Source of the DNA: Hericium rajendrae
Taxonomy: Eukaryota; Basidiomycota; Agaricomycetes; Russulales; Hericiaceae
Length of the DNA stretch: 64,000 bases
Direction of reading: 5' to 3'
NCBI GenBank assembly: GCA_033439255.1
Contig: CM065891.1
Coordinates: forward strand, 1,364,001-1,428,000
The notes below the pieces were generated by a model. The model saw nothing but the letters and a program-made list of their open reading frames with translations, searched no databases and had not been told where the DNA came from. Of the stretch, positions 7,278 to 51,806 are shown in pieces. The translations under genes and the position numbers were made by a program. Every line of letters starts with the position of its first letter. Within the stretch, counting starts at the first letter, position 1.

Positions 7278-7882
7278 ATGAAGGGTTTGCTCGCCATCGT
7301 CGCTCTCGCATTCTACGCCTGCCAGTCGTCTGCCTCGGCTGTTGTCGGGACGAATGTCCAGGTTAGACTTGCTCATCCTTTTCTCATGGCGAATCTAACT
7401 GTGTTTGGCAGGCTCGCGCCCGTCCAGATTGTGCAAACCCAAAGGATGCTGTTACCCTGCTGAGGGGAGTCAGACCGAACAGTCAGGCCCACTCTTATTC
7501 TACAAATGCCACAGCGATGGAACGGTGGATCGCTCTGAACAAGGGCCGCTCTGAGGGAGATGCCGCTCGCGTATTCGCGTCTCAGGAGGGGTCGACCGTT
7601 CCTGTTTACGGGGCCAACAATCCGGCCGATTTCGACAACGTCTACACCACCGACTCGAACGAGATAGTCACATTAGTAGCGCAAGGGTGGACCAATGTCG
7701 GCATCACCTGGTACGCGTACACATCGCAGATCTGCGATAGTGTTCCGTTCTATGTCGTGGACAACCCTGACTTGACCGACCACATCTACACGACGAATAT
7801 CACGGAGAGGGACGCGCTGGTTAGCAGCGAGAATTATGTCGATGAGGGCATTGCGATGTATGTGCTGCCCTTTACGGGATGA
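7278..7882 (+). CDS. Small secreted DUF5648-like protein, copy 1
   Basis: The start at 7278 gives a signal peptide (MKGLLAIVALAFYACQSSAS). One intron (about 7363-7411, GTTAGA to GGCAG) joins to a mature domain of about 160 residues ending at TGA 7882. The mature part contains three imperfect repeats typical of DUF5648: YSTNATAMERW with SEGDAARVF, then FDNVYTTDSNE with WTNVGITWYAY, then DHIYTTNITERD with YVDEGIAMYVLPF. In fungi these are cysteine-poor secreted proteins of unknown role; bacterial relatives are often attached to cell-wall hydrolases. It is a paralog of the gene at 10645. Secretion and family are well supported, function is not. Confidence 0.85.
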
Positions 7883-8483
7883 TCGTCTAGTGTGGCAGAG
7901 AAAGTAAGTCATCGATGATTCTTTGCTTAAAGCACAATTAAGCACGTACTGACGGTTGATACTCTGTTGCAGCACGTGAGGCTTAAGGCGTTGCTTTGGC
8001 GGATTGGCGGTAGATTGTTCGACCTCGCTTCCTTCGTTCATATGTCGCTGTCCGGGTAGAACATGATAAGCATCTTTATTGGATCACCATGTTTACACAG
8101 TTTCAGAGATAATTCGCCACACTGATGGACCAAGCTTGAACAGAGACACGGATCGTCGGTCGGCGGCCCTGTTCTGCGACCACTGAAAAAAGCCAGCCAG
8201 AGAGCAGAGCGTGAAAGTAGCATATGTTGCCGCGGCTTTATACACCTTGAACGTGGTCTGGTAGGCTGAGTCGTATTCTCCTGTGGTTGGTTCTGCCATG
8301 CTCAGAGGACCGAGGCAATGAAGGCGTGCAAGATTACCAGATTGCAAATGCAATACCTAGTGATTGTACGCGCGGCGTTTGAAATTCACATAGGGTCACG
8401 GGATCAAGCGTTGTCTTCTGAATCTCAGTGGCAGAAATTCAGAATCTCACTCGACTCTCGCTCTCTCATAAACGACCACAGCA
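7883..8483. other. Intergenic, nothing recognised
   Basis: This includes the 3' flank of the DUF5648 gene, with an intron-like GTAAGT to GCAG segment (7903-7972) that may be a spliced 3' UTR. No other gene is seen. Confidence 0.4.
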
Positions 8484-10644: not shown

Positions 10645-11267
10645 ATGAAGGTTTTCTTAGCCATCCTCGCTTTCGCCATTTACACCGGCCGGTCGTTGGC
10701 ATCAACCATCTTGAAGAACAATGTTCAAGACGTGCAGGTTCGCTGACATGAACCTTTTTCATATTTGACGAGACGTCTAATCGAGTTTGGCAGACCCGTC
10801 AGTCTCCGCTTTGCGGGGATCCGAGAGATGCTGTGACCCTCCTCCGAGCTGCCAGGTCTAACACAGCAACGGCACATTACTACTCTACCAATGCCACAAC
10901 GCTGGAAACTTGGATTACACAGGTGGGGGGCTACTCTGAGGGAGACGCCGCTCGAGTGTTCGAGACGCAGCAACCCTCAACTACGGCCGTCCAGCTGCTC
11001 AACAACCACAGCGACAAGGACAACGTCTACACCACCTCTGACGACGAGGTCAGCACATTGGAAGCAGAGGGCTGGACATATCATGGCATCGCTTGGTATG
11101 CGTATACGTCACAGATATGCGGAAGCGTTCCGTTCTACGTCGTGAATAATCCCACCACGACGGATCACATCTACACGACGAATCTCACGGAGCGGGACAC
11201 GTTGATTAACGGTCAGGGATATGTTGACGAGGGAATCGCAATGTATGTGCTTCCGTTCACGGGATAA
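10645..11267 (+). CDS. Small secreted DUF5648-like protein, copy 2
   Basis: The start gives a signal peptide (MKVFLAILAFAIYTGRSLAS). One intron (about 10738-10793) lies at the same place as in the copy at 7278, just before the mature domain. The three DUF5648-type repeats are again visible (YSTNATTLETW/SEGDAARVF, KDNVYTTSDDE, DHIYTTNLTERD/YVDEGIAMYVLPF), and the C-terminus YVLPFTG is identical in both copies. The N-terminal and loop regions differ more, so the duplication is not very recent. The stop is TAA at 11265-11267. Function is unknown. Confidence 0.85.
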
Positions 11268-11707
11268 TTTTCGAGCAAGTGTCGACTAGGTACAAGTGAA
11301 CTCTTCGCTCGCAATGGCCACATACTGATCAACTTTTTCCAGACTTCCGAGCACGGAGTTGTCGCTTGCCATGGTCTGACTGTCAAATTCCTTTCCCTTT
11401 CCTCTCCCTTATAAGTATGTACTTGTCTTAGTTATACTCGTTGTTGTTTTGTTTCATTAGCGGCAATTATTGACTGTTACTATTGTAATGGACGACGGAC
11501 GACTGAAGTTTACAACTGCATGGCATTGGGGTACAGTATTAGCTAGGGAGAGGAAGGAGCGTACCACTGCGGAGGGGTGGGCATACACGACTACACATCA
11601 TCATACTAAACGACAGAGTCAAGAATAAGTATGAACGAATAAAGTACCAACCGTGCGGAAAGTCTCTCGGAAATGCTACATGAGATCAGCTAGCCTCGCA
11701 TCAACCC
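11268..11707. other. Intergenic between convergent genes
   Basis: It contains the 3' flanks of the DUF5648 gene (plus) and of the minus-strand gene ending at 11708. An intron-like segment (11290-11342) may be a spliced 3' UTR. No gene is seen. Confidence 0.45.
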
Positions 11708-22117: not shown

Positions 22118-25100
22118 ATGAACACTTTTGCGGTAAATTTTTTCCTTTTTCAATTAGTTCTTCAGTGCTAAAAATGAGGATATTGCGAACACATGTTCAT
22201 TTTTTTTAGAATGGAGCCAGAGTCTTCTTCTGGGACGGCAATGGCAAAACCACGTACGGTCGAGTTCTGTCAACATCCATCCAGGCAGACGTGCGCGGCA
22301 GAGTATGTTCAGTCACTTAGTGCATTGAGGGAATGCCAGACGAGCTTGACAAAGTGCCATTGTTGATTGGCCATCCTGCGCTGGCCCGTCTGTCACAATG
22401 TAGCAGTCATCCAATGACAGGCCTGCTCTTCCTATGTACCAATGGGTCATTGTCCGGCCTCTAGTCATTTAATCTGTAGTGTCCATTCATCATTGACCGG
22501 CCTGTCCTCTGACGTCCATTAGATCATTGGCTGGCCCACTTGATCCCGCGGGATATCAGTTGCTCGGCCCGTCCTCTACTGTCCATTGGGTCATTGGCTG
22601 GCCCATCCCCTTATAATGTCTACTGGTCATTCATCATTGACGGGCCCGTCCTCTGACGTCCGTTGGATCATTGGCTGGCCCTCTCAATCCTGCGGGATAT
22701 CAGTTGCTCGGCCCGTCCTCTACCGTCCATTGGGTCATTGGCTGGCCCGTCCTCTGATGTCCAATGGGTCATTGGCTGGCCCTCTCAATCCTGCGGAATA
22801 TCAGTTGCTTGGTCGGTTCTCTACCATCCATTGGGTCATTGACGGGCCTGTCCCCTTATAATGTCTACTGGTCATTCATCATTGACGGGCCCATCCTCTG
22901 ATGTCCAATGGGTCATTGGCTGGCCCTCTCGATCCCGCGGAATGTCAATTGCTCGGCCGGTTCTCTACCATTCATTGGGTCATCGACAGGCCTGTCCCCT
23001 TATAATGTCTACTGGTCATTCATCATTGACGGGCCCATCCTCTGATGTCCCATAGGTCATTGGCTGGCCTGCTCGATCTCGCAGGTTGTCAATTGCTCGG
23101 CCGATCCTCTACCATTCATTGGATCATTGACAGGCCCGTCCTCTTACAATTTCTACCGGTCATTGAGTCATTGGCTGGCCCATCCTCTTACAATACCACT
23201 GCATATTCATCATTGACTGGCCCGTCCTCTGACGTCCAATGGGTCATTGGCTGGCCTGTCCTTTAACAATGTCTACTGTACATTCATCATTGACGGGCCC
23301 ATTCTCCACTGTCTAATGGGTCATTGGCTGGTCCACTTGATCCTACAAGTTGTCAATTGCTCGGCCCATCCTCTACTATCCAATGGGATGTTATTGGATC
23401 TCATGGAATCCTGCCAGACTCTGTCTTAGACATTTTCAGATCCCATGTGATCCCACGGGATTCTGTTTTGGACATTTTCAGATCCTATGAGATCCTGTGG
23501 GATTCTATCTTAGACATTTTTGAATCCCATGAAATTCCACAGGATTCTGTTTTAGACATTTTTGGATCCCATGGAATCCTGCAGGATTCTGTTTTAGACA
23601 TTTTTGGGAATCCCGCGGGATTCTCTTTTGGACATTTTTGGATCCCATGGGATCCTATGGGATTTTGTTTTAGACATTTTTAGGGATCCTGTGGGATTCT
23701 GTCTTAGACATTTTCTGACTACATGAAATCCCGCGGGATTCAGTTTTAGACATTTTCTGACTGCATGAAATCCCGCGGGATTCAGTTTTAGACATTTTTG
23801 GAGATCCCACGGGATTCTGTCTTAGTAGACATTTTCTAACCACATGAAATCCCGCAGGATTTTGTTTTAGACATTTTTAGAGATCCCGCGGAATTCTCTT
23901 TTGGACATTTTTGGATCCCATGGGATCCCATGGGATTTTGTTTTAGACATTTTTAGGGATCCCACAGGATTCTGTCTTAGACATTTTCTGACTGTATGAA
24001 ATCCCGCAGGATTCAGTTTTAGACATTTTCTGACTGCATGAAATCCCGCGGGATTCAGTTTTAGACATTTTCAGAGATCCCGTAGGATTCTGTCTTAGTA
24101 GACATTTTCTAATCACATGAAATCCCACGGAATTCTGTCTTAGACATTTTTAGGTATCCCGTAGGATTCTATCTTAGACATTTTTCGACCACATGAAATT
24201 CTGCGGAATTCTGTTTTAGATGTTTTCAGATCCCATAGGATCTTGTGAGATTCTGTTTTAGACATTTTTAGATCCCATGAGATTCTGTCTTAGATATTTT
24301 CAGATTACATGAAATCTCACAGACTCTGTCTTAGACATTTTTGGATTCCATAAAATCTTGTCTTAGATGCTTTTAAATTTCATAGGATCAAATTATATGA
24401 GATGTTGTTTTAGACACTTTCAGATCCTATCATGGGATATTACAGGATTTTGTTTTGGATAATCCTGTGAAATCTCATCTTAGACACTTTTGGATCTTAT
24501 GGAATTCTGTAGAATTCTGTTATATAGACTTTTGCTTCTCACATTAGCAAACATGGTCATTTTTCTGACTCATTGACAGTGGTCTGACTCATCTGAAAGT
24601 AGTCTGACAAGTAGTCTGACTTATGCAAATCAGACCATTGTCAGTGAGTCAGAAAAATAGTCATCTTTGCCTATCTCAGATATATTTATTTAGAAATTCA
24701 ATCTGAGATACCAGAATAGCAAAGTAACAAGTGATATGTAAAAATAGTGATATGTGTCTTGAAGTGTAGTACAATGTCATCTGAGTGGTAGACAAGTAGT
24801 CTGACTGTCATAGCTGTCCTGGCTCACTTGCAAACTGCAAAATACTGGATAAAATGCTTTGTGTAAAACAAAAATTTGTAAATATCTCAGTTAATTCTGA
24901 TCCAATTGATATAAAAATGTTACTATATGAAAGGTCCTAAAAAACCTGCATCTAATCCAATATATTGCTAAACATATTCTCCAATTGAACCATAAAAAAC
25001 TGCAATATACTGATTTGTACAATTTTTAAGTATAATATTTGTATCATGACCTCAACCAGTCCTTATATAACTTAATGCATGTTATATTCAAATTGATTTT

Positions 25101-27614
25101 AAGGAATCATCTATCAAAGAATGCATATAGTTGTTTAAGCACACATTTTCATATTTGGTAGTTAATATAAGTAAAAAAGTGTTACATTTGAATTCAGCTC
25201 ACAAAATGAAGCAAATATATATAGATATATTGTATAGTTAAGTACTAAACTTGGCATAATTGCTTATAGAACAATTTGGATGTCAGATCTGAGCATAGCT
25301 TGAGATTCTTGGATAATTGCCAAATTGATAAATTACCATTGGATCTCATGAGATGACACTAAATCAGCATTTTGCAAAATATCATGGTAACTCAGGTGAA
25401 ACCTTATAAATTTCAAAAGTATCTAAGACAAAATCCTACAAGACTTGATCTCATGAAATCCAAAAGCATCTAAGACAAGATTTTATAAAATACAAAAAAT
25501 ATCTAACATAGAGTCCTACAAGATCTTATGAATCTAAAAACATCTAAAACATAATCTTGCAGGATTTTATGTAGTCTGAAAATGTCTAAAACAGAATCCC
25601 ATGGGATTTCATGTGGTTAGAAAATGTCTACTAAGACAGAATCCCACGGGATCTCTGAAAATGTCTAAAACCGAATCCCGCGGGATTTCATGCAGTCAGA
25701 AAATGTTTAAGACAGAATCCCGCAGGATCCCTAAAAATGTCTAAAACAAAATCCCGTGGGATTTCATGTGGTTAGAAAATGTCTAAAATCGAATCCTGCG
25801 GGATTTCATGTGGTTAAAAAATGTCTACTAAGACAGAATCCCGTGGGATCTCCAAAAATGTCTAAAACTGAATCCCGCGGGATTTCATGCAGTCAGAAAA
25901 TGTCTAAAACTGAATCCCGCGGGATTTCATGTAGTCAGAAAATGTCTAAGACAGAATCCCACAGGATCCCTAAAAATGTCTAAAACAAAATCCCATAGGA
26001 TCCCATGGGATCCAAAAATGTCCAAAAGAGAATCCCGCGGGATTCCCAAAAATGTCTAAAACAGAATCCTGCAGGATTCCATGGGATCCAAAAATGTCTA
26101 AAACAGAATCCTGTGGAATTTCATGGGATTCAAAAATGTCTAAGATAGAATCCCACAGGATCTCATAGGATCTGAAAATGTCCAAAACAGAATCCCGTGG
26201 GATCACATGGGATCTGAAAATGTCTAAGACAGAGTCTGGCAGGATTCCATGAGATCCAATAACATCCCATTGGATAGTAGAGGATGGGCCGAGCAATTGA
26301 CAACTTGTAGGATCAAGTGGACCAGCCAATGACCCATTAGACAGTGGAGAATGGGCCCGTCAATGATGAATGTACAGTAGACATTGTTAAAGGACAGGCC
26401 AGCCAATGACCCATTGGACGTCAGAGGACGGGCCAGTCAATGATGAATATGCAGTGGTATTGTAAGAGGATGGGCCAGCCAATGACTCAATGACCAGTAG
26501 AAATTGTAAGAGGACGGGCCTGTCAATGATCCAATGAATGGTAGAGGATCGGCCGAGCAATTGACAACCTGCGAGATCGAGCAGGCCAGCCAATGACCTA
26601 TGGGACATCAGAGGATGGGCCCGTCAATGATGAATGACCAGTAGACATTATAAGGGGACAGGCCTGTCGATGACCCAATGGATGGTAGAGAACCGGCCGA
26701 GCAATTGACATTCCGCGGGATCAAGAGGGCCAGCCAATGACCCATTGGACATCAGAGGACGGGCCCGTCAATGATGAATGACCAGTAGACATTATAAGGG
26801 GACAGGCCCGTCAATGACCCAATGGATGGTAGAGAACCGACCGAGCAATTGACATTCTGTGGGATCGAGAGGGCCAGCCAATGACCCATTGGACATCAGA
26901 GAACGGGCCCGTCAATGATGAATGACCAGTAGACATTATAAGGGGACAGGCCCGTCGATGACCCAATGGATGGTAGAGAACCGGCCGAGCAATTGACATT
27001 CCGCAGGATCAAGAGGGCCAGCCAATGACCCATTGGACATCAGAGGACAGGCCCGTCAATGATGAATGACCAGTAGACATTATAAGGGGATGGGCCAGCC
27101 AATGACCCAATGGACGGTAGAGGACGGGCCAAGTAACTGATATCCTGCGGGATCAAGTGGGCCAGCCAATGATCCAATGGACGTCAGAGGACAGGCCGGT
27201 CAATGATGAATGGACACTACAGATTAAATGACTAGAGGCCGGACAATGACCCATTGGTACATAGGAAGGGCAGGCCTGTCATTGGATGACTGCTACATTG
27301 TGACGGACGGGCCAGCACAGGATGACCAATCAACAATGGCACTTTGTCAGGTTCATCTGGCATTACCTCAATGCACTAAGTGACTGTTTCATGTGCGCGG
27401 CATTCTATGTCTACATATGTTTACCACGTGTCTGAGTAGCTTCCTTTATAGCATACCCAGATCGTTGCAATACGTCTTGAAGGGACACTAACAATTGTAC
27501 ACCTTCCGTAAGCATCAGTTATCAATGTCAGATTGCCGTCAGCTCATTGATCGTTTGTAACTTCTTAGGGCAGACCTCATCAATGCCGATCACGGACATC
27601 AACATGATGTTTAG
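22118..27614 (+). CDS. Small 62-residue protein split by a transposon-filled intron
   Basis: A pyrimidine-rich leader precedes ATG 22118. Exons are 22118-22132 (MNTFA), 22210-22290 (NGARVFFWDGNGKTTYGRVL, then STSIQAD), 27461-27507 (IVAIRLEGTLTIVHLP) and 27569-27614 (ADLINADHGHQHDV, stop TAG). Phases agree at every junction and the total is 189 nt. The protein looks like a small SH3-like beta-strand domain seen in short basidiomycete proteins; this family link is from memory and the function is unknown. Intron 2 (22291-27460) now holds the foldback element. Without it and one copy of the duplicated target the intron would be 68 nt, normal for this genome. The original 5' splice site is kept, so the gene may still be expressed if a 5.2-kb intron can be spliced. 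Earlier exons (21750-22002) may belong to it or to a separate gene. Confidence 0.65.
22291..22300 (+). repeat. Target-site duplication, left copy (also 5' splice site)
   Basis: GTGCGCGGCA is identical to 27393-27402 and differs from it immediately outside on both sides. It is also the first 10 bases of intron 2 of the gene at 22118. Confidence 0.8.
22301..24500 (+). repeat. Left inverted arm of foldback element
   Basis: Pairs in reverse complement with about 25380-27392. The segment 23324-23683 and its partner 25970-26329 translate to the same 119 residues, showing near identity. Similarity fades toward the centre beyond about 24400. Confidence 0.85.
24548..24669. repeat. Short palindrome within the element centre
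   Basis: TTTTTCTGACTCATTGACAG at 24560 pairs with CTGTC/TGAGTCAGAAAAA ending at 24657, with two mismatches over 28 bases and weaker pairing outward to 24548/24669. It forms a hairpin nested inside the large inverted repeat but not on its axis. Confidence 0.7.
25380..27392 (-). repeat. Right inverted arm of foldback element
   Basis: Reverse complement of the left arm with small indels. It contains the same ordered repeat classes mirrored: ATCCCGCGGGATTC units inside, GGCCAGCCAATGA units outside. Confidence 0.85.
27393..27402 (+). repeat. Target-site duplication, right copy
   Basis: GTGCGCGGCA repeats 22291-22300. The intron continues from here to the acceptor ATACCCAG ending at 27460, 68 nt in all. 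Confidence 0.8.
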
Positions 27615-27893: not shown

Positions 27894-28616
27894 ATGAAGA
27901 GAGCGGGCGTTTACCGTAACAAATCCTACAGTCTTTCTCTCATGGACTCGATTGCACCAGACGATATTTCTTCTCCCTTGCCTCTCGACCTCCCGGATAT
28001 TCCAAACTACTCCACTGCCCATCTTCACCTTGAGCCTGACGCATATTATAAATCACTGGCAGAATCTCGCTTCAATCTAGTTCCCCAGGTTCCCCAAGTC
28101 CCTGATGCGAATGGAAAGCTTGGCGACGACTGTATCTCGCCAGGCTTCGTGGAGCTGATTGAAGTCATCCCGAATTCGAAGCCAGAGTGGGTCATGGTCG
28201 AGCCAAGCACTGTGTTCTTGAGTCTGGGAGGTGCTGTATACTGGACCTACAAGGACCGGCAGTACTTTGTCGAGATCCAGGAGGAGACATGGTTTGCAAA
28301 GGGGTATGTGAGGTTCATGATAGCAGGAATACCAGACAGGAGAGGCCACACATACGAGACATTCCTATGGTGCCCGGTCGTTTGGGCATACATCCGCACA
28401 TTCCCTCAACCATCGCTCGGATTCCTACAATTCGGTGGTGGATATCCGCAGTCAACGGCACCATCTGGATCAGCAAACTCGACGCTAGCAATAGAACGTT
28501 TAGAGGGGCTGGGGGAGAGAAAGGGTAGCTTCCTCACAATGAGTGAAGAAGATTCTGCTGCACCCCCACCGGCACTAACGGTGCGGGCGACGCGGCTAGA
28601 AGCCACGGCCCAGTGA
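27894..28616 (+). CDS. Hypothetical protein, family shared with the gene at 51807
   Basis: A single exon of about 240 residues; ATG at 27894 or 27942 could start it. The N-terminal third is Pro/Asp/Leu rich. The core contains WTYKDRQYFVEIQEETWFAK, GYVRFMIAGIP and YETFLWCPVVWAYI. The same pattern, YxxxVxEET..GYxRFxMIxG then YExxLWCPxVWA, occurs in the unrelated-looking protein at 51807-52490, so the two are paralogs. No known domain is recognised, and there is no signal peptide or membrane segment. The C-terminal 50 residues are low-complexity (EEDSAAPPPALTV). The open frame is intact. It lies between the foldback element and the Helitron. Confidence 0.65.
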   Translation: MKRAGVYRNKSYSLSLMDSIAPDDISSPLPLDLPDIPNYSTAHLHLEPDAYYKSLAESRFNLVPQVPQVPDANGKLGDDCISPGFVELIEVIPNSKPEWVMVEPSTVFLSLGGAVYWTYKDRQYFVEIQEETWFAKGYVRFMIAGIPDRRGHTYETFLWCPVVWAYIRTFPQPSLGFLQFGGGYPQSTAPSGSANSTLAIERLEGLGERKGSFLTMSEEDSAAPPPALTVRATRLEATAQ

Positions 28617-29863: not shown

Positions 29864-29894
29864 CATACCAATTTCACCGTCGTAACGCTTAACC

Positions 29895-32800
29895 ATGTTT
29901 CTCATAAAGCAGCCTTGTACATATCCTCGTGTGGTAGACAATGATCATCATCCTCCGTCAGATGGTCAGCATGATTGGATGGACTACCTTGAGTACTACT
30001 CACCTCTCTATTACCCCGAGTTACATCCACAAATTTTCGGCGATGGTGCCAAATTATGTACGTGGTTCACTGAGATGGTAAAGGAGGCAAGTCCCGGCGA
30101 ATGGAATGTATGGGCTGAGAATCAGCAGTTCATTGTGATTCCGAGACAAAGACAGTGCAGACCTTTTGCAGTTGATTTTGCCGCAGTTTCGGATGCGACG
30201 TTTCGACCAGAAAGGATCCTTGGCGATTTGAAGAAGCCGATCGCGACACATAGTAGTAGGGATGGTAAAAATCCACTTTGGTTCAGGTCCTCGGAGGAGC
30301 ACTTTGTGAATTCGTTGATGGCGCTAAGCTACGAAAAATTGGAACAATGCCTAAAGCGCATTCAGCAAGCACGAAACCAGAAAATGGGGAAGCGTGACTG
30401 TTGTGCAATGATTGCTGCTCATGCGCAACGGTTGATAACAGATTTTTCTGGTACTGACACATATATTTTCCGCACTATGGCCTATATGATGGGAATGAAG
30501 GATGCAGAAAGATGTTCACGGGACAGTGTTATCTGCTTTTACTTCTGCTTTATGGTTGGACCGGAGATATGTGATAGATTGCGCACATCGGGATGTCATG
30601 ATCACCCAGAAAAGGGTGTATGCAGTGGGACACCAAGTATATTCGATGACGATGTGGGAGAGGCCGTGCAAACAAGGTTGTTGAAGACGGGTCTCGCTAT
30701 CAACACATTGCGAACGGCTCTTACCAGGATTGATCCGATGAACGAGCTTTGTAATGCACCGAAAGCCGATGTAGGTTGCCTTGCACAAGCCATTGTAGCC
30801 AATTTCAGAGTTAGAATTGCACGATTGCAGAGTTCACCGATCTCTCACCTGCTTGAGGATGTTCTATGCTGTAATCCACAGTTTATAGATGACGAGATGA
30901 GGATTTTCAGCGATGAGGATTGCATAGCTGCGATCTTGAAATGCGAATATGGTGATAAAGTTTCAGCCATCATGCTGAACGCGAGAACCAACATTGAGAA
31001 GTTACGAGCGAAGGATCGTGAGCGGCAACGGAGAGCAACTCGCAAAATTGCTGATGCGAGAAATGCCAAGGCCCTTGAAGAGGAGGATCACCTGCGATCA
31101 AAGATAGACAACTGGCCTCAAGTAGTGGATCCAGAAATCGTGTTTCGGCGACTGAACGACTACATGGAGAGGTCAAACTGGAAAGAGCCTCCTACGTGCT
31201 GTGTATGTTCTAGAGCAAAAGTAGGAATGAGGTATTCGTCAATCAAAAGCACGGATAAAGAGTTTCCGAACCAGATCTGGGATTCGCTGGAGGTTCGGGA
31301 CCCTCAAGTTCGAGTCGCTATGTCACTCTGTGGAGATGTGACACGAATGGTGACGGATATGGCCAAAGGTGATGAAAAAGATATTTTGCTCGATAAAAAA
31401 GGAGTGAACATCATATCCTCTGATGACAAGAAAGATGCATGTGAGTATGAGTACCTTATGTGTGCGGACTGCAAAAGAGAGCTCTCACGGGGGAAACTGC
31501 CAAAATTCGCTTTAGCCAATGGACTGTATCGTGGTCGCTTACCAGACGAATTTGCAGATTTGACGTGGATTGAAGAGATGGTATGCTGCATATATCGTAC
31601 TACCGCCATGGTGACTCGTTTGTATAGAGGTAGCAGTGATCGCGATCCGCGCGTAATGTATGGCAGCACATGCGCACATGAAATGAACACTGTTGATACT
31701 GCAGAGAAGCTTCCGCTCGCGCCGGCTGACGTGAACAACATGCTGTCCGTGGTCTTCGTGGGTCCTGGCACGGTAGAGACTGATAGTCTGAGGAACATTT
31801 TCTATATTCGTAAGCAAAAAACGATGAATTTCCTGAGATGGTTGAAGCGCAACAATCGGTTATATAAGGACGTGCTGGTCGATGAGGCTGTTTTTGATTT
31901 GTATCCTGAAGACGGTGCGCTACCAGGTGTAGATGGACGAGTGATTTATACAAACATGTCTGCAGAGGAGGCAGACGATGTTTTCAAGCGGGAAACAGCT
32001 GGCGTTAGTGAGCATCCATCAGAGCTAATGTTTGAGGATAAAAGCGGGGGACCGACCGTTGAGCAGACTCCTCCAGTGTACTTGGAACGCTGTGGGGTAG
32101 CGGATCCGGAGAATGTTGATGTGTCTGGGCGCACAATGCTAGCGGCAGGTTTGAGAAACTTACTACCAAGAAAGGAATCAGAGGATGTAGGCATGATTAT
32201 AGCGCGAGGTAGTCGAGCGATAAATGAATGGAATAACCCCGATTTGTACCATGGAATGTATCCGACTCTGTATCCCTTCGGCCTTGGTGGCTTTGAAGAT
32301 ACAAGACGAGATGTCAAAATCAGCTTTGGAACACAAGCTGAATATTACCTAGATTTATCTGATAGAAGCTTTCGCTATCATTACTCATTTATGTTTGTTG
32401 TGCTAAATATCATTCAGCGTAGAAAAGGGCAATTGCATACAAGCTTCATGGTAAAGAAGTCTCATTTCCGTTCGGTTATGAACGAATTGCGCGGATTGAA
32501 CAGAACATCAATTGAAGAATTTGCGAGTCTGCTCGAGAAGGAACGTACTTTGCCGTCATCATTTAATGCAGAGCAAAAAGTTCTGTGGTCATTGATGAAG
32601 GAATTTAATGCAATATCTGCCAAAGTACCGGGCTCTGAAGCGTCGAAGGTGTCAGTAAGAGCTAATATAAGGAATTATATGGGTGAATTCGGCTTACCTG
32701 CACTATTCCTGACGGTGAATTTTGCTCCACAACACAGCCCGATTTTTCAGGTCATGTTTGGAGACAAGGTTGTTGATTTATCCCGTCGGTTTCCACAAAT

Positions 32801-35800
32801 CGTCCCAGGCCCGGAACGGGCGAAGCGCTTGGCGAAAGATCCCGTGGCAGCTGCTGACTTCTTTGATTTTTGTTTACAGTGCTTATTTGAGGGTCTATTT
32901 GGATGGGATATGAAAAAACGACGCTCTACGCCAGACGGGGGCATTCTAGGACATCTGAAGGCGTACTTTGGAACTGCAGAATATAGCGAACGTGGGACAT
33001 TACATGGTCATTTTCTGCTTTGGCTGCTGGGCGCGTTAAACCCTTCCGACTTGCATGCTCGACTGAAGGTCGATGAGGCATTCCGGATTCGATTCTTTGA
33101 GTTCTTTGAAGATATAATCAAACACGATGTACCCGAGGTAGATTTCTCTACCGCCAAGTTGGCTGAATTTGAGCCAAGAGTTGAGAGACCTCCCACGCCT
33201 CCGTGTCCCATCGGTCCGGGAGAGACACGCCCGGAAGAGGTCATGAATAAATGGGAAACTGTAATGGCAACTGAAGTACGTATGATCGGTGAAAAATTAC
33301 AGAGACATACTTGTCAAAGGATCTGCCATAAATATGGAAATGAAGAGCGCTGTCGTTTCTTGTTCCCGCATGAGATCGTCGAGTCATCACGCTTTGATGC
33401 CGAGACAAACTCTGTTATCTTTGTGTGTAAGGATGCGACAATGAATTACTATAATCCATATATCCTGGTGTTTTCCCGGCACAATCATGATATAAAATGC
33501 ATACTATCGGGAAAAGCTGCGAAGTCAGCAATGATTTATATCACAGATTACATCACGAAGATGGAGACTAAATTCACCCAAATGTTGTCTATGCTTTGTG
33601 GTGCAGTCCTCAAACTACCGGAAGGGTTGGATGTAACTACAAAGGACGGATCCAAGAAGTTGTTATATAAATGCTTGTCCCAGTTCAGTAAGAAACAAAT
33701 CATCCAAGCACAACAAGCAGCACGATACCTACGAAATCGAGGGGATTCTATTGAATCGCATGAGAGGGTGCCTATGCTTTCTGGGTTGGTGTTCGAGTTT
33801 GCAAAACGGTGCTATGCGCAGATAGCCAAGAAAGATCCTGACGTGACCATGAAGGATGCCGATCATGCCTCTGATACAGACAATAGTGATGACGAAGAGG
33901 ATGATAGCGCAGGCATCCAGATGAATCCTAAGCAGGGCTCCGATGTCGAAAAAGGCAGAAGAGACAAAGCAGAAGACGAGGATCAGACGGAGGAAGAAGA
34001 GCATATCCAAGTTCAACTGCGAGTGGATCGTGAAGGGAGGCTTATTGATGCCACTCAGATTGATGACTACCTTTATAGAGATGTGCGTCTTGAACATATC
34101 AATTTCTGTGATTTCATCAAATTCTATCAGGTCTCTAAGAAACAACAGCTCAGCAAAGAGGAACGTGCCAAATTAAAGAGATACAAGTTGGAATCCCCTC
34201 ACCCTTGCGCTGACAGGCAGGAAATTGTTGAGCGATACGTTGGCACAGAATCTGCGGGAGACTTCCCTCGCGTTGTGGTCCGTGTAACAGGCATGACTAT
34301 CCCGCGATCCACAAAAGGAGAGATACATGCGTTATTCATGTTGGCGCATTTCAAACCTTTCAGTGCCAGACGTCCATTATTTGGGTCTAACGACTACGAT
34401 ATAGACGCACTGATGAAGTCATACCCTTTCTCCGAGAGAAGCCAACAGATCATGAGGAACTGGGAAGAAATCTACGAATGTGAAGATGAGCGCGATGCAG
34501 AACGGATGAAGCGACGTGACAAGTTGATGAAGGAAGCTGGGAAGTTGGAGAAAAAAAAGAAGCAACGGGATGAAAACGATGAGAACATACCGGAGATTGG
34601 CAAGGCGGCCTCAGGGAATGATGAAAATTTTGAAGATCCGGATGTAAAGGATATGTTGGACAAATTAACAGACGCGAGATTTCTTGATCCTGCGGTGTTT
34701 CTGGATCGTGGAGCAGTTTATCGTCCGCCAAAAGTCCCGATTTCCTCCCAAGGATTGTCCGCAGTGGATCCGAGGCAAGCACGTGACTGGGAGAAGGAAA
34801 TTAAGATCCAAGAAGCTGCGATACAGTCCGCAAGGTTGAATCTGCTTGATCCGGGAGCACAAAACATTAGGATGGAACCAGAATCTGTAGGAAGCACTGA
34901 TGTTAATCAACCAGTGAAGATAAGGGATAGAACGCCAGACTTTTCTGGTTATGTACCACCTGTACCACCTACATTGATTAATAACGGGGGACTGGACGTT
35001 CCATTAAGTACAGCAGATGAAGTTATACGGACTGTTGCGGAAAAACATACATTGAATAAAAAGCAGTTCTATGCATTTGAAATTATTGCACGAGCATGGA
35101 TCAAAGTTCACGAGCGACGCATTTCAGGAGAGGCAGTCGATGAAAGCAAAGATAATGATGACATACTTCGATTATTAATGACTGGTCCCGGTGGGACTGG
35201 AAAGACTCATTCTGTGATGGCAGTGAGGGAGGTCATGGAGTATTACGGTAGTGCGCACAGACTTAGGCTAACTGCTATGACGGGCTCCGCGGCTGCTCTG
35301 ATAGGTGGAACGACTTGCCATAAGGGTCTAGGTATCCGTGTTAGACAAAAAGTCAACCAGGAAGGAAAATCACGAACCGGATTGGATGAAAAGTACGAAA
35401 TCGATCTGCCCCCAAATGCTCGCGCGGCGTTGAGAGCTAATTGGAAGGATGTAGACATCATGCTAATAGATGAGGTCTCACTCGTTAGTCTGCAGATATT
35501 GTCAGACATTGATCATGCTTTGAGATATGCAAAAGAGAAGCCAAATACCTGGTTCGGAGGCATGATAGTAGTCTTCTCTGGGGACATGATGCAATTCCCA
35601 CCCGTTTGCGCTACAGCTTTGTGCCACATCGTGCGGGGTGCTAGGTCGAAATTGAATGGGAACCAGCTAAAGGTAAGCCTGGGGAGGCTCGCATGGAAGA
35701 CGGTGAACAAAGTGATTGAATTTGATGAGCAATTCAGGATGAAGGATGATCCCGCCTATGCGGCTGCGGTAGGCCGCTTGCGTCTTCATGAATGCGTCCA

Positions 35801-37852
35801 GGCCGACGTAGATCTTTTCAATTCACGAGTTATTTGATCAAGGCGAAAACCGAATGGAATCCTGTTGAGCGGGGAAGAGAATGCAAACGCGGTGACGATT
35901 GTTGACACGAACAAAGTCCGAGAAAAGATCAATTTGCGGAAGGCACAGAGTAACTCTATACCAGATACTGCACCAGAATTGGTATTGTGCGCAGCCCTAG
36001 ATTTCATCAACGGTAAGCTAGTGCCGGTGAATGATTCCCGCAATTTTAGAAGGGAAGCGTTAGCTTTACAGACTGCTGCACTCACAAAAGAAGGAGCTCT
36101 ACCTGGATATATACCATTGTATATCGGAATGCCGGTCATTCTGCGCAGAAAGCATGTATCCGTCGACCTGAAAATTGCCAATGGTTGCCAAGGCACGGTG
36201 AGACATATAGAGATGGGAGTCGATGAAACTGGCTTCAATTATGCGAAACTGGCGCTGGTTCACTTTCCTGGAAGTAAAGTCAAACTTACAGGTCTAGATC
36301 CAGAAGTATGTATAATCACCCCGGATTCCTGGTCATTCAGCACAACCCTTGAACTTGAGAAGGGAAATCCCAAGCGTTATACGATCAACCGAAAGCAACT
36401 CCCTATCCAGCCCGCCTTCGCTGTTACTGGGCAATCAGCACAAGGGAAGACGTTGCCAAAAGTGATAGCTGACCTATCCAAGGGCGGTGCGGCTGCTTAT
36501 GTGGCTGCTTCAAGGCCAAGGTGACGAGAGGACATCTATTTGATACAAGAAGTCCAGCTTCAGCAATTGAATAAACGCATGAGTGCAGATATGATGCTAG
36601 AACTAGCCAGATTTCGCGCTTTGGAACATAATACCTTGAGACGCCACGGATATTGTAAGGGCGATTTCGTTGATGTTCCGGACCCGGAAGAGCGCTACAT
36701 GAACACTTTATCTCAAGCAGAGAGGCAACCGAAATTCGAAATCACATGGACGGATGATCAGCCATCGAATAAGAGGAAGCGAAAGCTGGAAGAGGACGAT
36801 GCCGTATCGTCAGTAAAGACAGCAAAGCGGCGGAAAGACAAAACACAAACAGGACAGGAAGGCGCTTCCGTGGATGAATACCTCCCCGGATGCCAATGGT
36901 CGAGTCAGGACTATTCCTGTGCATACGACTCAGTATTTATGAGCATGTATATGATGTACAGATCAGCCAGGTTGCAATGGCAGCGCGGATGGACAGATGG
37001 CAACATCATCGCGACACGCCTGTCACAGTCGTTTAGTACTTTGGTAGGATTGGAGCAGATACGTCCTGTCCAGAGTGATGAATTGAATTGGCATCGGGAT
37101 CAGCTGCGAGACCTTTTGAGTGAAATAAATCCTACAAGATATCGTCGAAGGGGTTTGAATATGCGTCAGCTATGGACGTGATATACGACGCGTGGCGTTC
37201 AGATCATAAGGATCTGTGCTTGGTTCATGTGAATACGGCTGAGAATGTGTTCCCTGATGCTAGATTGTTCCTTGAGATATACGAAGATCCAAGAATGAGT
37301 ATAGAAAAGCATTCGATTCAATGTTGGGTAAACGCTTGCCTTAGCAACTGCTACGCCGCTCCTCCCAGTCTTCCAGAGTATCACACGGAGCAGTGTAACG
37401 ATATTATCCTGACCTGTCATGGTTTGACACAGGCACCAGCATGGCTATACTTCGAGTGCGCGTGTCAATTGGGAGGAACTATCGAACCGACGCGTTTCCT
37501 GAGCATCCCAGTTTGCGATGAGAGGAGAACATACATTTTGAGTTCTATTATTTACTTCGGTGGCGCGCATTATACAGCAAGAATCTGTACTGATTCTGCG
37601 ATTTATGCTTACGATGGTCAGAGAATGGGAGGCAAATGTGTGAAGCAATTTACTCACGATGCAGAAGAGTATGATGCTGAAATAAGGCATACACTTTTGA
37701 CACTGGATGGTCGAAACGCTCAGATTTTCATTTATGCACTGACTGAGAACGACCACTCATCTGGACTTCCTGCGGGAATGACGGGACCGGGCAGAGAAAT
37801 GAGAGACGTTCCACATTTGCGAGCGAGGATGTCTGCTCGAAGTGCCATATAG
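29895..37852 (+). pseudogene. Helitron RepHel polyprotein with C-terminal peptidase-like segment
   Basis: The main frame runs 1980 residues from ATG 29895. Order of parts: a Cys-containing DUF6570-like domain (LPKFALANGLYRG, residues 530-570); a Helitron-like N domain; the Rep HUH motif LHGHFLLW (about 1037) and the two-tyrosine motif YITDYITK (about 1214); an acidic linker; and a Pif1-type helicase with Walker A GPGGTGKT (about 1763), Walker B MLIDEVS (about 1855) and SGDMMQFPPV. A TGA at 35835 interrupts helicase motif IV-V, and another at 36522 follows AAYVAASRPR; reading continues in the same frame after both. A frame change near 37150 precedes the last 220 residues. The tail has a Cys box (SCAYDSVFMSMYMMYRS, about 36916) and a His box (YFGGAHYTARI, about 37555) followed by IYAYDGQRMGG, as in ubiquitin-specific-type cysteine peptidases. 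The copy is disabled but recent. Confidence 0.9.
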
Positions 37853-38121: not shown

Positions 38122-41045
38122 TCAGCGTGCCAAAGTCGTATGCCGGCGTAACGACTGGGGCTCGACAAGAGGAATGGTTGGCAGACGTCCATTGCGGCTC
38201 AGAAACATTCGGCAGTAATATGCAATGAGATCCTGCTCCCAAGCGAGGAAGGTGTCACTATTCGTATCATGATGACTCGGCTCCTGTGGGAATACGAAGG
38301 TTGACGGCGGCCAGGCTTTCAAGAGAGAGAACAAGATTTTCATGCTTTCGACACGGTGTCGCCACAACGGCGATGAGAAGGGATCCACCACACCTGATTC
38401 TTGAGCGACGTTGCATGGACTTTCCCAACAGGGGATGTATTCCCCATGCCACATGCTTTTGATACCCTTCTCGCGTTGAAGCGTCGCGGCTGTATCTTGG
38501 TACACAGCCGGCAACATGTCCTGGTCAAATCGCATGAATTCCACTCTGAACCCTATGGCGTGCACCTCCCAAGCGACCTCAGCCCACAGCGTGCGATCAC
38601 TTTCGGCATCTTGGCGCGTGACTTCTTTCGATGCCCATTGCGGAAGCGGGTTTACATCCTCTGCGTAAGGTGCGATGCCAGCGTGAACACCAAAGCGCAC
38701 ATTGATGTCGAGACGATCAAGACTTCTTCTGATCTTTCGACGAAGTTCGGCCGTCAGTTTGCCCTCAGCATTGACCCGGAGAGATTTGGCATCGTCGTGA
38801 TTGGGAGCAAATTGTAATCGCTCTATGTCCGACAGTGATGACGTCGGTTTCAAGGGAACCGCAGGTAGACGAATGCGGTAATACCGGCCTTCCAACGCAA
38901 CCCTCCATTGCATGGCCGTCATAAGGATGCGCCAGTTTTTGGAAGGTGACATTATTTGAGAGATGCACCACAGGCGAATGCGAAGCCAGTGATGTATTTT
39001 TTGGCAAATGTAGTGCCATGCGCGGAAAACACGTGTAGAGGAGGGAATGCATAGTGGAATGCATTATGGGAATCAACATCAGCAACTTGAAGCTCCGGAT
39101 TCTTGGACAAGAAGGCCTTCCAAGATGGCTGATAATCAGGCGCCCATTCTGGTTTGAGGCGTACATCTGGACCCCTTGATCCGGCAACTGCATCAAGCGC
39201 TATTTTCTGTCTCTTTGCAGGCGGAGCTTCGGGACGGCGTGATGTGATTGACTTATTTGCCTTGCGACACGTAGAATCTTTGCCATGTAATCCAGAGGAA
39301 GTGGATGTTGCTATATAAGACATTAGCCAGCGCTCAACAAGACAGCGCACGCATTCAGCGTACCAGAACTTCCCAGCACAGACTTGTTTGATTGTCCTTC
39401 AGCGTGCTCCTCAGCATCCAGGACCGGTACCAGTTTGCGAATTGTGGGCTTGCTACTTAAGCTATAACGGCGCAGCTGCTCTCCCAAGCCGCCTGAGGTT
39501 TCATCAGCAATGGGCGCTTGAGCCCAAGTTGGTGTAGGCACAAGGCGATCACCGCGACGAATATTGCGCTCGGAAGAGAATACCATTGAACCTGGAATAT
39601 AAGGCCTGATTGAAACGACACGAGTGGAGGGCGTGAGAGATGCAATAGGACGGATGAACCAGACAGGCACTCCCAAGCGATACAGAGATGAACAGGTCCT
39701 CACATTCGCTGTGATAGCACCGCGGAGAGGTTGGACGCGGTGGCTATTGTCGAGGAGGGTGTACTGACTACGAGGACGCATGACTTTGGTATAGATGATC
39801 CATCCGCGCAGTTCGAGGAGGAGTCGCTGAGCTTCTCGTAGCCACATCATCGTATCAAAGGCCGACATCGGATGTCCGTGCATGATGGATACTGTGTGAT
39901 TAAGGCGGTTGACTAGGTCCCACATGAACATTCTGCGGCGTTGACGGAGTTGTTCTTCGTTGTCCGCTCCATCGACCTCCAAACCGTTGAACGGCACTGC
40001 CTCATTCAGTTCGTCACTTGGGCTCCCTCCAAATGCTGCATGAGCAACTTCTTCAGCAATTGTGGTAGTTTCGTCTATAGCCTTCTTCAGCCTCTCTACG
40101 AAAGTTGGCCTCAGGCGGCCAATGGGTGCTTCATTTCCGTGACTTAGAAGCTGTAAGTCCTTCTCGCCAAAATCGCACCAAGGGATGTCAAGATCGGTAA
40201 AAGCTGGGATATCCGCATGGCTAAAATGCTGGTTACTTAGAGCAAGCAATCTCGGATTTGCTGGCACGGCAAAGGTATGCGGTTCCATGCGGTCGAACAT
40301 CTGGGGCCACTTGGTGTGCTCGAAAAACCCGAGCATGCCATCAGCATAGTAGGAAAAGATTTGTTCAGGGGAGTGATGCGGAAGCTCTGGGATCCAAGGC
40401 ATATTCGGGGATGATATACACATGTCTTTGTTGCCGGGCAACAGAGTAATCGAAAGGCAGTCTGTGGCATTCTGCAAAACCTCGCCGGTGGCCAACGGAG
40501 CAAATGAACATTTTGTAGTGATTGCATCGAAAAAAGGCATTCTTTATGCACAAATGAGACTGGGTTGACGGGGGAACACCGAATGATATACTCACTGTGG
40601 GCATGTGCAAGGGGCTTGGCCATTGTTGCCACATTTACAACGACGCGTGTCCAAGCTGCTGCAATACAATGCAGTGGTGATTAGCTAGTTTGATGTACAG
40701 GACAGAGCGTACTTACCTTGATAGACGAGTATCTGCCATGACGACGAAATCGAGAGTGAGTTTCGTTGATATGAAGAGGTGACGTGTACGGAAGGAAAAC
40801 TGGTGACCAAAATGAAGAGTCCAGCATTTTCGATCAAAACAGGGCAGCAGAGGAAAGAGAAAAGGACGAGACATACCTCCGTTGGGTGGATGTGGCTCAA
40901 TGTCGTGGTTATAGACATCTGTCAGCAGGGTGACATTGAGAAAGTAACTATCACATACTGACGACCTGCGTAACGCAGTTGCTGCCGTTCGGGAGCAGGA
41001 TGAAGGACCCACGAGATACCAGGATGGAGCAGAGAACGTCAACAA
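38122..41045 (-). pseudogene. Helitron-companion gene, repeated in Agaricomycetes
   Basis: A long minus-strand gene with introns (for example about 39336-39291 between LNA and TSTSSG). Its segments include DVYNHDIEPHPPNG (about 40900), a Cys motif CKCGNNGQAPCTCPQ (about 40630), LPGNKDMCISSPNMPWIPEL (about 40420), the block FMWDLVNRLNHTVSIMHGHP (about 39900), WLREAQRLLLELRGWIIY and VRSIRPYIPG-like VSIRPYIPGSMVF. The C-terminal part (38122-38952) is helical with ARFGV/WEVHAIGFRVEFM. I recall similar proteins as multi-copy and unannotated in mushroom genomes; this is memory, not a search. A frame change near 40535 (poly-T before FFDAITTKC) and one near 38950 suggest it is inactive. No enzymatic motif is recognised. 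Part of it is duplicated at 54080-55254. Confidence 0.65.
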
Positions 41046-41487
41046 GACGAGACTCTGGTCAGCTTATCAACCCCGTCAACGAGACGGAGTTGCAGGATCC
41101 CAGGGCAGAAAAGACACAGCGTAAGGCCAAGGACTTGCTGCGGCAAGAATTCAGATATTCGTAGATCCAGGGCAAGAGATGACGATGGGAGACGTAGAGT
41201 TGTATGGGGACAGAGGCTGAGGACAACAATGAGAGTTGGAGTCGAGAGGAGAAGCGATGAATGTGGACGGTGGTCGACCCGCCAAGGTGCCGAAAACGCC
41301 GCTGGGCGAAGCGCCGGCAGGTCGCTGAGTCAGTAACACGCGGCCAACAGGTGGCTGGTGAGCCTAAGCAAGTTCACCGCTCAGTTAGTGACAGGTCAAG
41401 TCAACAAGTTTAGTTCTTGCTCTCCCCACCGTCCACCATCCATCCCCGTTATGTCCTACTGCGTGCATGCCATTGTCTTCACTGCGT

Positions 41488-45594: not shown

Positions 45595-46158
45595 ATGTCT
45601 ATAAGGGTAGGCAAATCACTTTTTTCTGTCAGAAGTTACATTGAACATGCGTTTGGCAGACTCGTTCAATCCGTGCTTACCGCATTGGAGACGACATGGG
45701 AGAGGACAATCCGCTCGGCCGCTACATCAGTGTACCGACGTTGCATCAGGGTGTCAGTCGTGGTCTCAGTCTACCACGTGTCACTGCAGTCTTCGAGACA
45801 CGCGCCCACATCGTAATGGAATACTGGGAGTATAGCGTTGACTTCGCCGACCCGACGGAGAGCAGGGAGAGATTTGCGGTCTACTATACACGCGATATCC
45901 GTGCATATCCCCGCTACAACCGAGCCGTCCACCACAGAACACAAGGACTGCGTTGGTTCGGGGAGTTCTTAGTCTTCAAGTGTTCAGCAGCCCCCGGCCG
46001 TAGGCTTGTGAACATGCGAACCGGCGACGATGAACTCGCGTGGCAGATCGTTCTCCAGTAAGTGTATAAAGCTATGATTTTGGTTAACCGGGTCTAACAT
46101 GCTTGTGTGCGAGTCTAGAATCATGAGGGAGGAGATGGGGCTCGGGCTGCCGTTGTAA
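45595..46158 (+). CDS. Hypothetical 150-residue protein
   Basis: Exon 1 is only MSIR (45595-45606). After an intron (45607-45658) the main exon reads TRSIRAYRIGDDMGEDN, then VPTLHQGVSRGLSLPRVTAV, FETRAHIVMEYWEYSVDFAD, RFAVYYTRDIRAYPRYNRAV and LVNMRTGDDELAWQIVLQ. A last intron (46060-46119) leads to IMREEMGLGLPL and TAA at 46158. All junctions keep phase. No known domain is recognised; the central part looks like a compact beta-rich fold. The final exon and the following 300 bases have a diverged copy at 55315-55680. Confidence 0.7.
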
Positions 46159-46194
46159 TCACGATCCTATACTTTTGTCCGTACGATCAGTGTT

Positions 46195-46463
46195 ATGCGT
46201 GAGAGCGTTGGAGAACATTCTGATATATGTGCGAGGAAGCTGGATCGAGATATGCGCTTACTACGGGCGAAGGAATCGAGGATGCTATTGGGGCCGCTTG
46301 GGATTGGAGACGCGAGGGGCTCCGCAAATTCGCTTGGAAGGCCGCGTCGCGTAAATTGGCGAAAGAACGGGAGGAAGGAAGAAGTCGATGCTGAGTTTGG
46401 CCGTGCCTGCTCCGTCTAAAGCATCCGTCTCGCTGGAGAGCTAATTCTATATTGCAGAAGAGC
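46195..46463 (+). pseudogene. Decayed C-terminal exon of an unrecognised protein
   Basis: The frame ending near 46396 reads RYALTTGEGIEDAIGAAWDW then RREGLRKFAWKAASRKLAKE, a well-formed amphipathic helix ending in REEGRSRC and TGA. Upstream coding is lost: compared with the copy at 55376-55500, about 34 bases after DIC are missing here, while that copy has its own small insertion. Both derive from an older common source. Whether it was once part of the gene at 45595 is unclear. Confidence 0.45.
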
Positions 46464-51220: not shown

Positions 51221-51806
51221 GCATCCGATCCGAGGCGGTTGTCCCGTAGCAATGGTTGGCCCCAATCGCAATGGGCCGGGCTTGGAATAATAGCCTGTTT
51301 TCGTTTTCTTGTATTTCGCATCGAGTACCTTCTTCATGAACTGAATGTGACCTCTTGAAGTGATGCTGGCTTACACGAAGTCGGGCTACTTGCTGTTATT
51401 TCTTCACGTTCACCGTCCATCTAAGTACTGCACTACAAATACAAAGCAAGGGCTCATACTAAGGGTCATGCGTGTACTCACGCATCACCCAAACCTCTGC
51501 CAGCTTCTTATTGAAGACATGGCCAAGCCGCTGAGAGTATGTGTGTGGATCAAGAGAGGAGCAGTGAGAGCGAAGGTAGCTGAACATGGTTGCAGTGAAG
51601 GTGCTATGTTGCCCTTCCAATATTGCTGTCACTTCTGGCTTCTGTGAGTAAATTCTCTGAATCTCAGATTGGGCGTCAATGATAGGGTTTTAAGTTCAGA
51701 ACATGCTTTGAGCGCCGCCAGGCGGAGATTCACATTAAGCGAGAGTTGATAAAAGGGGGGCGACAAGGGAGAGAGCATCTATCATCACTTCTACTAAACT
51801 CTCCCA
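51221..51806. other. Intergenic, nothing recognised
   Basis: A minor frame at 51360-51647 has no domain. The region ends in a T/C-rich leader before the ATG at 51807. Confidence 0.4.

What the first reader, a model, noticed from the sequence alone, without database searches (positions are those of the whole stretch)
22118..27614. Foldback transposon inside an intron, with the target duplication copying the 5' splice site
The 10-bp duplication GTGCGCGGCA (22291-22300, 27393-27402) is also the first 10 bases of intron 2 of a tiny gene. Removing the element and one copy leaves a 68-nt intron joining STSIQAD to IVAIRLEG in phase. The insertion therefore enlarged the intron to 5.17 kb, kept a donor before the element and placed a second donor just after it. 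Because RNA of the arms can fold into a hairpin of about 2 kb, the two splice sites would be brought close together, which could let the intron be spliced despite its size. That last step is inference.
Basis: partly seen in the sequence, partly recalled or inferred. Interest (0 to 1): 0.85.

Follow-up and report, generated by a model that had tools for sequence, protein, structure and literature searches.

The report
Foldback transposon in a probable intron
A 5.1-kb hairpin-forming jumping element sits at the very start of what looks like a short intron in a tiny, probably fungal gene, leaving splice signals on both sides, so the gene might still work; this is a neat but fairly ordinary kind of insertion, and whether it is spliced is untested.

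Summary
The element is real: 5,092 bp (22301-27392), flanked by a perfect 10-bp duplication GTGCGCGGCA. Two ~2-kb arms (95.4% identical over aligned columns) are built of tandem arrays around an A+T-rich centre; no transposase was seen. The outermost 9 and 6 bases are not inverted copies of each other. The anatomy resembles Mutator/Foldback elements such as nematode Tm1; membership cannot be tested without a transposase or a second copy. The host gene is a plausible four-exon, 65-aa model, but no homolog was found in collections that hold no fungal genomes, so gene and ancestral intron remain inference. The likelier 3' splice site is 27451, not 27460 (ancestral intron 59 nt; adds HTQ). The element also brings a consensus donor, GTATGT at 22303, in phase (adds VRGR). 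In the predicted fold the donor is 44 steps from the acceptor instead of 5,160 nt, but 1 of 12 shuffled elements did as well, so closeness alone is weak evidence; the unusual feature is stability (-3,980 against about -1,500 kcal/mol). Clean splicing of a 5-kb intron is possible but not shown; a silenced or broken allele is at least as likely.

The parts
22118..22132 (+). exon 1 of the gene model (MNTFA)
   Evidence: ATG and in-phase joining; model only, no homolog found
22133..22209 (+). intron 1, 77 nt, GTAAAT...TTTTTTTTAG
22210..22290 (+). exon 2 (NGARVFFWDGNGKTTYGRVLSTSIQAD)
22291..22300 (+). left copy of the 10-bp duplication GTGCGCGGCA; also the presumed original donor GTGCGC
22301..27392 (.). 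whole foldback element, 5,092 bp
22301..22309 (+). outermost 9 bases of the element (GAGTATGTT), not mirrored at the other end; contain donor GTATGT at 22303-22308
22310..24343 (+). left arm: ~144-bp units (to about 23390), then 34/42-bp units
24344..25413 (.). A+T-rich centre without an open frame of 60 codons or more; holds a small nested hairpin (24559-24658)
25414..27386 (-). right arm, inverted copy of the left arm
27387..27392 (+). outermost 6 bases of the element at the right end (TTTCAT), not mirrored at the left
27393..27402 (+). right copy of the 10-bp duplication; second potential donor
27403..27451 (+). rest of the presumed ancestral 59-nt intron, ending CTTCCTTTATAG; imperfect branch-point candidate CTGAG at 27432-27436
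27508..27568 (+). intron 3, 61 nt, GTAAGC...CTTCTTAG
27569..27614 (+). exon 4 (end of P, then ADLINADHGHQHDV and stop)

Best explanation
A non-autonomous foldback DNA transposon, probably mobilised by a transposase encoded elsewhere, inserted with a 10-bp staggered cut at the first bases of a pre-existing ~59-nt spliceosomal intron of a tiny gene. Because the duplicated 10 bp contain the whole donor (positions +1 to +6), the copy next to exon 2 stayed intact. The branch-point region and acceptor lie beyond the right end and are untouched, so the insertion enlarged the intron to 5,161 nt without destroying a splice signal. The element also brought a consensus donor, GTATGT, at its left end, in phase, so transcripts could join 22290 or 22302 to 27452. 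Shown: element, duplication, phase, presence of the signals. Inferred: that the gene and intron are real, that transposition made the arrangement, and that splicing still occurs.
For: Duplication exact and not expected by chance. Arms 95.4% identical over aligned columns. No stop-to-stop frame of 150 codons or more overlaps the element; those of 60 codons or more in it lie in the repeat arrays. The model has three GT...TAG introns of 77, 59 (ancestral) and 61 nt, in phase. That is the size seen in a basidiomycete, Cryptococcus neoformans, median 55 nt (PMC2483917, passages). In a shortened construct (exons, flanks and arm ends) the acceptor stretch 27444-27451 is 75% unpaired against 25% for 27453-27460. 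One of only two GTRNGT motifs on the element's + strand lies at 22303.
Against: No homolog of the 65-aa product: Pfam (one hit at E 0.14 below its cut-off, none), PDB (best E 0.92), viral contigs (21 pattern stretches, none confirmed) and genome contigs (132 pattern stretches, none confirmed). The last two hold viral and prokaryote DNA; Pfam and PDB hold only part of fungal proteins. The empty-site sequence reads open for 32 codons past exon 2, so no stop forces an intron. The branch point is imperfect (CTGAG, not CTRAY). GTGCGC is not GTRNGT. In the fold of the whole stretch both acceptors and donor 22303 are paired, donor 22291 is not; in the shortened construct donors 22291 and 22303 are only 32% and 34% unpaired, CTGAG 20%. 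The intron would be about 90 times the usual length. No second copy of the element was seen in the window, so its ends rest on one copy.
Confidence: 0.68

Rival explanations
1. Zippered intron: the arms pair in the nascent RNA, the ~2-kb hairpin brings donor and acceptor within tens of nucleotides and hides most internal acceptor-like sites in duplex, so the intron is spliced nearly as if the element were absent.
For: Predicted fold: donor 22291 to acceptor 27451 44 steps instead of 5,160 nt, 39 to the branch candidate, 34 from donor 22303; empty site 46 steps. Energy -3,980 against -1,471 to -1,547 kcal/mol in 12 shuffles. 26 of 29 TTTTAG/TCTTAG sites in the element are paired. Zipper stems that shorten the branch-point distance favour efficient splicing of the yeast introns tested in PMC2536676 (abstract and passages).
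Against: 1 of 12 shuffles had a path as short or shorter, to the acceptor (34) and to the branch candidate (29). By a stricter rule (branch motif plus first AG) only 4 of 7 decoy acceptors are paired. In yeast RPS17B an average structural distance of 26.7 was efficient and 37.6 inhibited; 39 here (one minimum-energy fold only) is not clearly short. The hairpin can close only after most of the element is transcribed. No RNA data.
Confidence: 0.22
2. Null or silenced allele: the insertion blocks the gene. The intron is retained or mis-spliced, or the hairpin RNA feeds Dicer and silences the locus and the element family.
For: Retention gives ...QADVRGRVCSVT and a stop, 9 codons past exon 2. Fungal introns are short and thought to be recognised across the intron (PMC3925392, passages). 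The fold contains an uninterrupted helix of 678 bp. That Dicer would cut it is recalled general knowledge.
Against: The splice signals outside the element are intact and the model's exons carry no stop or frameshift, though a recent insertion would look the same. In PMC3925392 retained introns were not longer than spliced ones (89 against 93 nt, not significant), but that concerns ordinary lengths.
Confidence: 0.4
3. Intergenic insertion: the tiny gene is a chance reading and the element simply sits between genes.
For: No homolog; a 65-aa, four-exon model with short exons is easily assembled from many sequences; no stop forces the intron.
Against: Three short introns, in phase, with similar TAG ends. 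The product looks like a small beta-strand domain of a kind I recall from basidiomycete proteins (recalled, not tested).
Confidence: 0.25
4. Introner-like origin: the element created the intron, its duplication or first bases supplying the donor, rather than invading an existing intron.
For: Introners with TSDs can take a splice site from the TSD, and one in Aureococcus adds 12 nt (4 codons) to the transcript (PMC9860276, passages and legend), as use of donor 22303 would here.
Against: The acceptor lies 59 nt beyond the start of the right duplication, outside the element, and 59 is not a multiple of 3, so an intronless ancestor would have had a different C-terminus. The element is 5 kb, against Introner family median lengths of 30-654 nt.
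Confidence: 0.05

Closest known systems
Tm1, a Mutator/Foldback family of Meloidogyne (PMC3169594, abstract and passages)
   Same: Composite inverted arms made of tandem repeats; arms of one element on average 93.15% identical; target duplications of 8-10 bp in 45 of 53 elements; short asymmetric, non-inverted motifs (7 bp) outside the inverted repeat; members without coding potential
   Different: Nematode; units of ~14 bp (here ~144 and 34/42 bp); sequence similarity not tested; no transposase seen here
Drosophila Foldback and Galileo (search listing and starts of abstracts; papers not read)
   Same: Long, internally repetitive inverted arms
   Different: Galileo is placed in the P-element superfamily in the listed abstracts; no sequence comparison made
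Introners (PMC9860276, passages)
   Same: DNA transposon with TSD and inverted ends at a splice site; possible addition of four codons
   Different: Here probably an existing intron; one large copy; acceptor supplied by neither element nor duplication
Yeast introns with zipper stems (PMC2536676, abstract and passages)
   Same: A stem that starts shortly after the donor and ends before the branch point
   Different: Those are native stems in ordinary introns; here a ~2-kb transposon hairpin whose effect is untested

Membership tests
Foldback-type DNA transposon (structural class) | long inverted arms with internal tandem repeats | tested here: met
Foldback-type DNA transposon (structural class) | flanking target-site duplication | tested here: met
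   10 bp; an empty site in a relative was not available
Foldback-type DNA transposon (structural class) | dispersed copies in the genome | not testable with these tools
   no second copy in the window; the genome is not held
Mutator-like element, as in Tm1 | target duplication of about 8-10 bp | tested here: met
   10 bp; 8-10 bp in Tm1
Mutator-like element, as in Tm1 | Mutator-like transposase in the element or in a related autonomous copy | tested here: inconclusive
   frames of 60 codons or more in the element lie only in the arrays and were not scanned against Pfam; autonomous copies cannot be searched
Mutator-like element, as in Tm1 | asymmetric short ends outside the inverted repeat | tested here: met
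   GAGTATGTT against ATGAAA; compare
Introner | many similar copies acting as introns | not testable with these tools
   genome not held
Introner | splice sites supplied or recruited at the insertion | tested here: inconclusive
   donor possibly; acceptor outside element and duplication
Spliceosomal intron | GT-AG boundaries and in-phase exons | tested here: met
   on a gene model without homolog
Spliceosomal intron | branch point and proof by transcripts | tested here: inconclusive
   only CTGAG seen as branch candidate; no transcript data on hand

The most novel reading that the evidence does not exclude
A transposon that neutralises itself at the RNA level: the foldback arms zip the intron shut and bury internal acceptor-like sites, its duplication keeps the donor, and its own left end supplies a consensus donor in phase, so foldback elements of this family can sit in very short fungal introns with little harm and are over-represented there.
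Probability: 0.12. Interest if true: 0.65.

Novelty: new member of a known kind. Interest (0 to 1): 0.36.

Why it matters
If the intron is spliced, it gives a natural test of whether a kilobase hairpin rescues splicing in an organism whose introns are about 60 nt, and a route by which large transposons are tolerated in genes. If it is not spliced, it is an ordinary insertion mutation. Either way the element adds a probable fungal example to the foldback structural class.

Tried and rejected
An 18-bp imperfect duplication (GTGCGCGGCAnnnTATGT, 15 of 18) was considered: a run of 5 or more in register over 9 bases has a chance of about 0.4% in this window, but TATGT recurs a few bases further on in the right flank and the three mismatches are unexplained, so I keep 10 bp. 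A transposase inside the element: only frames within the repeat arrays. A paralog of the tiny gene in the window: none; tblastn hits other than its own exons had E 0.18 or worse. Relatives of the element by exact DNA pattern: none for the arm end in viral contigs; none for the inner-array pattern in viral contigs and two bacterial stretches in genome contigs (L002, L003); one stretch for the outer-array pattern in viral contigs (L001). Each of these three held a single match; they were not examined and I take them as chance. tRNA and Rfam scans (gathering scores) were empty. Structure prediction of the protein was not attempted, because a spliced product is not a letter-for-letter translation of the window. 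Donor- and acceptor-like motifs in the element are near the level of 200 shuffles: 2 against 5.1 +/- 2.4 donors and 7 against 5.5 +/- 2.5 acceptors, so I see no sign of selection on them. Papers: ten searches ran. For an earlier report of a foldback element in a mushroom-type fungus I looked only at titles and abstract starts in the listings (25 of 40 papers shown; 5 of 5; 15 of 219; 4 of 4; 15 of 41), and saw none; that is no proof of absence.
Full report
What is there. Between 22301 and 27392 lies a 5,092-bp element with two inverted arms. A gapped local alignment pairs 22310-24343 with 25414-27386: 1,833 of 1,922 aligned columns identical, gaps left out, 98.5% in the best block of 1,136 columns (ungapped blocks). 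The arms are tandem arrays: ~144-bp units outside and 34/42-bp units inside. The centre is A+T-rich and has no open frame of 60 codons or more; such frames in the element lie in the arrays, and no stop-to-stop frame of 150 codons or more overlaps the element. It is flanked by GTGCGCGGCA at 22291-22300 and 27393-27402, the only two places with this word on either strand of the window. Of up to 20,000 random 25-base pairs of the window, 4 shared 10 or more bases in a row (draws near or in the element were skipped and not counted apart).

The ends. The inverted repeat starts at CAGTCACTTAG on both sides, but outside it lie 9 bases on the left (GAGTATGTT) and 6 on the right (ATGAAA, read inward) that are not copies of each other. 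Tm1 Mutator/Foldback elements of nematodes have the same layout: asymmetric short motifs outside composite arms, duplications of 8-10 bp in 45 of 53 elements, and arms on average 93.15% identical (PMC3169594, abstract and passages). The element therefore looks like a non-autonomous foldback element. Membership in the Mutator superfamily cannot be decided without a transposase or further copies, and no genome is held for this window.

The gene. The model is exon 1 22118-22132, exon 2 22210-22290, exon 3 27452-27507, exon 4 27569-27614; product 65 aa. It gives an intron of 59 nt ending CTTCCTTTATAG, like the T-rich TAG ends of introns 1 and 3, and in a shortened construct it lies in a stretch 75% unpaired against 25% for the other. 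In the fold of the whole stretch, however, both acceptors are paired. The element also supplies GTATGT at 22303, one of only two GTRNGT motifs on its + strand; using it would add Val-Arg-Gly-Arg, though this donor is paired in the whole fold and 34% unpaired in the shortened one, against 32% for donor 22291. Against the gene: no match in Pfam (one hit at E 0.14 below its cut-off, none), PDB (best E 0.92), viral contigs (none of 21 pattern stretches confirmed) or genome contigs (none of 132). The last two hold viral and prokaryote DNA, so they say little about a fungal family. The empty site also reads open for 32 codons beyond exon 2. That the product resembles a small beta-rich domain of basidiomycetes is recall, not a test. 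That the window comes from a basidiomycete is likewise my inference from its look; no call named the organism.

The hairpin and splicing. The fold of 22211-27530 has energy -3,979.6 kcal/mol with 1,862 arm-to-arm pairs; donor 22291 is 44 steps from 27451, 35 from 27460 and 39 from the branch candidate. Twelve versions with the inverted-repeat part shuffled (dinucleotides kept) had -1,471 to -1,547 kcal/mol and donor-acceptor paths of 34 to 122; one of the twelve was as short as or shorter than 44. So closeness of the ends is partly what any long RNA does, and the special feature is stability, including one uninterrupted helix of 678 bp. 26 of 29 TTTTAG/TCTTAG sites inside the element are paired in this fold, but by a stricter rule only 4 of 7 decoy acceptors are. 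In yeast RPS17B, stems that shorten the branch-point distance go with efficient splicing, an average structural distance of 26.7 being efficient and 37.6 inhibited (PMC2536676, abstract and passages); 39 here, from a single minimum-energy fold, is not clearly on the good side. Introns of Cryptococcus neoformans have a median of 55 nt (PMC2483917, passages), so a 5.16-kb intron is extreme. Retention would end the protein after ...QADVRGRVCSVT.

Judgement. That the duplication begins exactly at the donor is a matter of where the insertion fell; a site elsewhere in the intron, clear of branch point and acceptor, would have left the signals intact as well. A 10-bp duplication is long enough to keep a whole donor on both sides, a tidy but expected consequence. 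The finding is a real foldback insertion, probably in an intron, with an untested effect on the gene. Closest parallels are Tm1 for the element, and Introners (PMC9860276, passages) and zipper stems for the possible effect on RNA.

Noticed in passing
24559-24658: Small hairpin (14-bp perfect outer arms) nested in the centre of the element, possibly a MITE-like insertion or a remnant of the original middle.
   Followed up: partly
29886-37181: Helitron-like chain of frames: the first piece matches DUF6570, Helitron_like_N and PIF1 helicase; in-frame TGA stops at 35835 and 36522 divide it. Probably a decayed copy, starting about 2.3 kb downstream of the tiny gene.
   Followed up: partly
40158-41361 and 54080-55255: 1.2-kb inverted pair, 96.6% identical, a dispersed repeat.
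   Followed up: partly
46131-46460 and 55315-55678; 35225-35287 and 55250-55314: Further repeats shared with the stretch near 55.3 kb, 79% and 86% identical; that stretch may be a nest of mobile elements.
   Followed up: no
47304-47933: Two 291-bp copies, 92% identical, starting 339 bp apart, in a frame whose translation is repetitive.
   Followed up: no
7445-7883 and 10827-11268: Two copies in the same orientation about 70% identical in DNA, probably paralogous genes.
   Followed up: no
27900-28616 and 51798-52487: Two frames share a 68-column stretch with 37% identity, E 2e-9 for the single comparison, and have no Pfam match up to E 1.
   Followed up: partly
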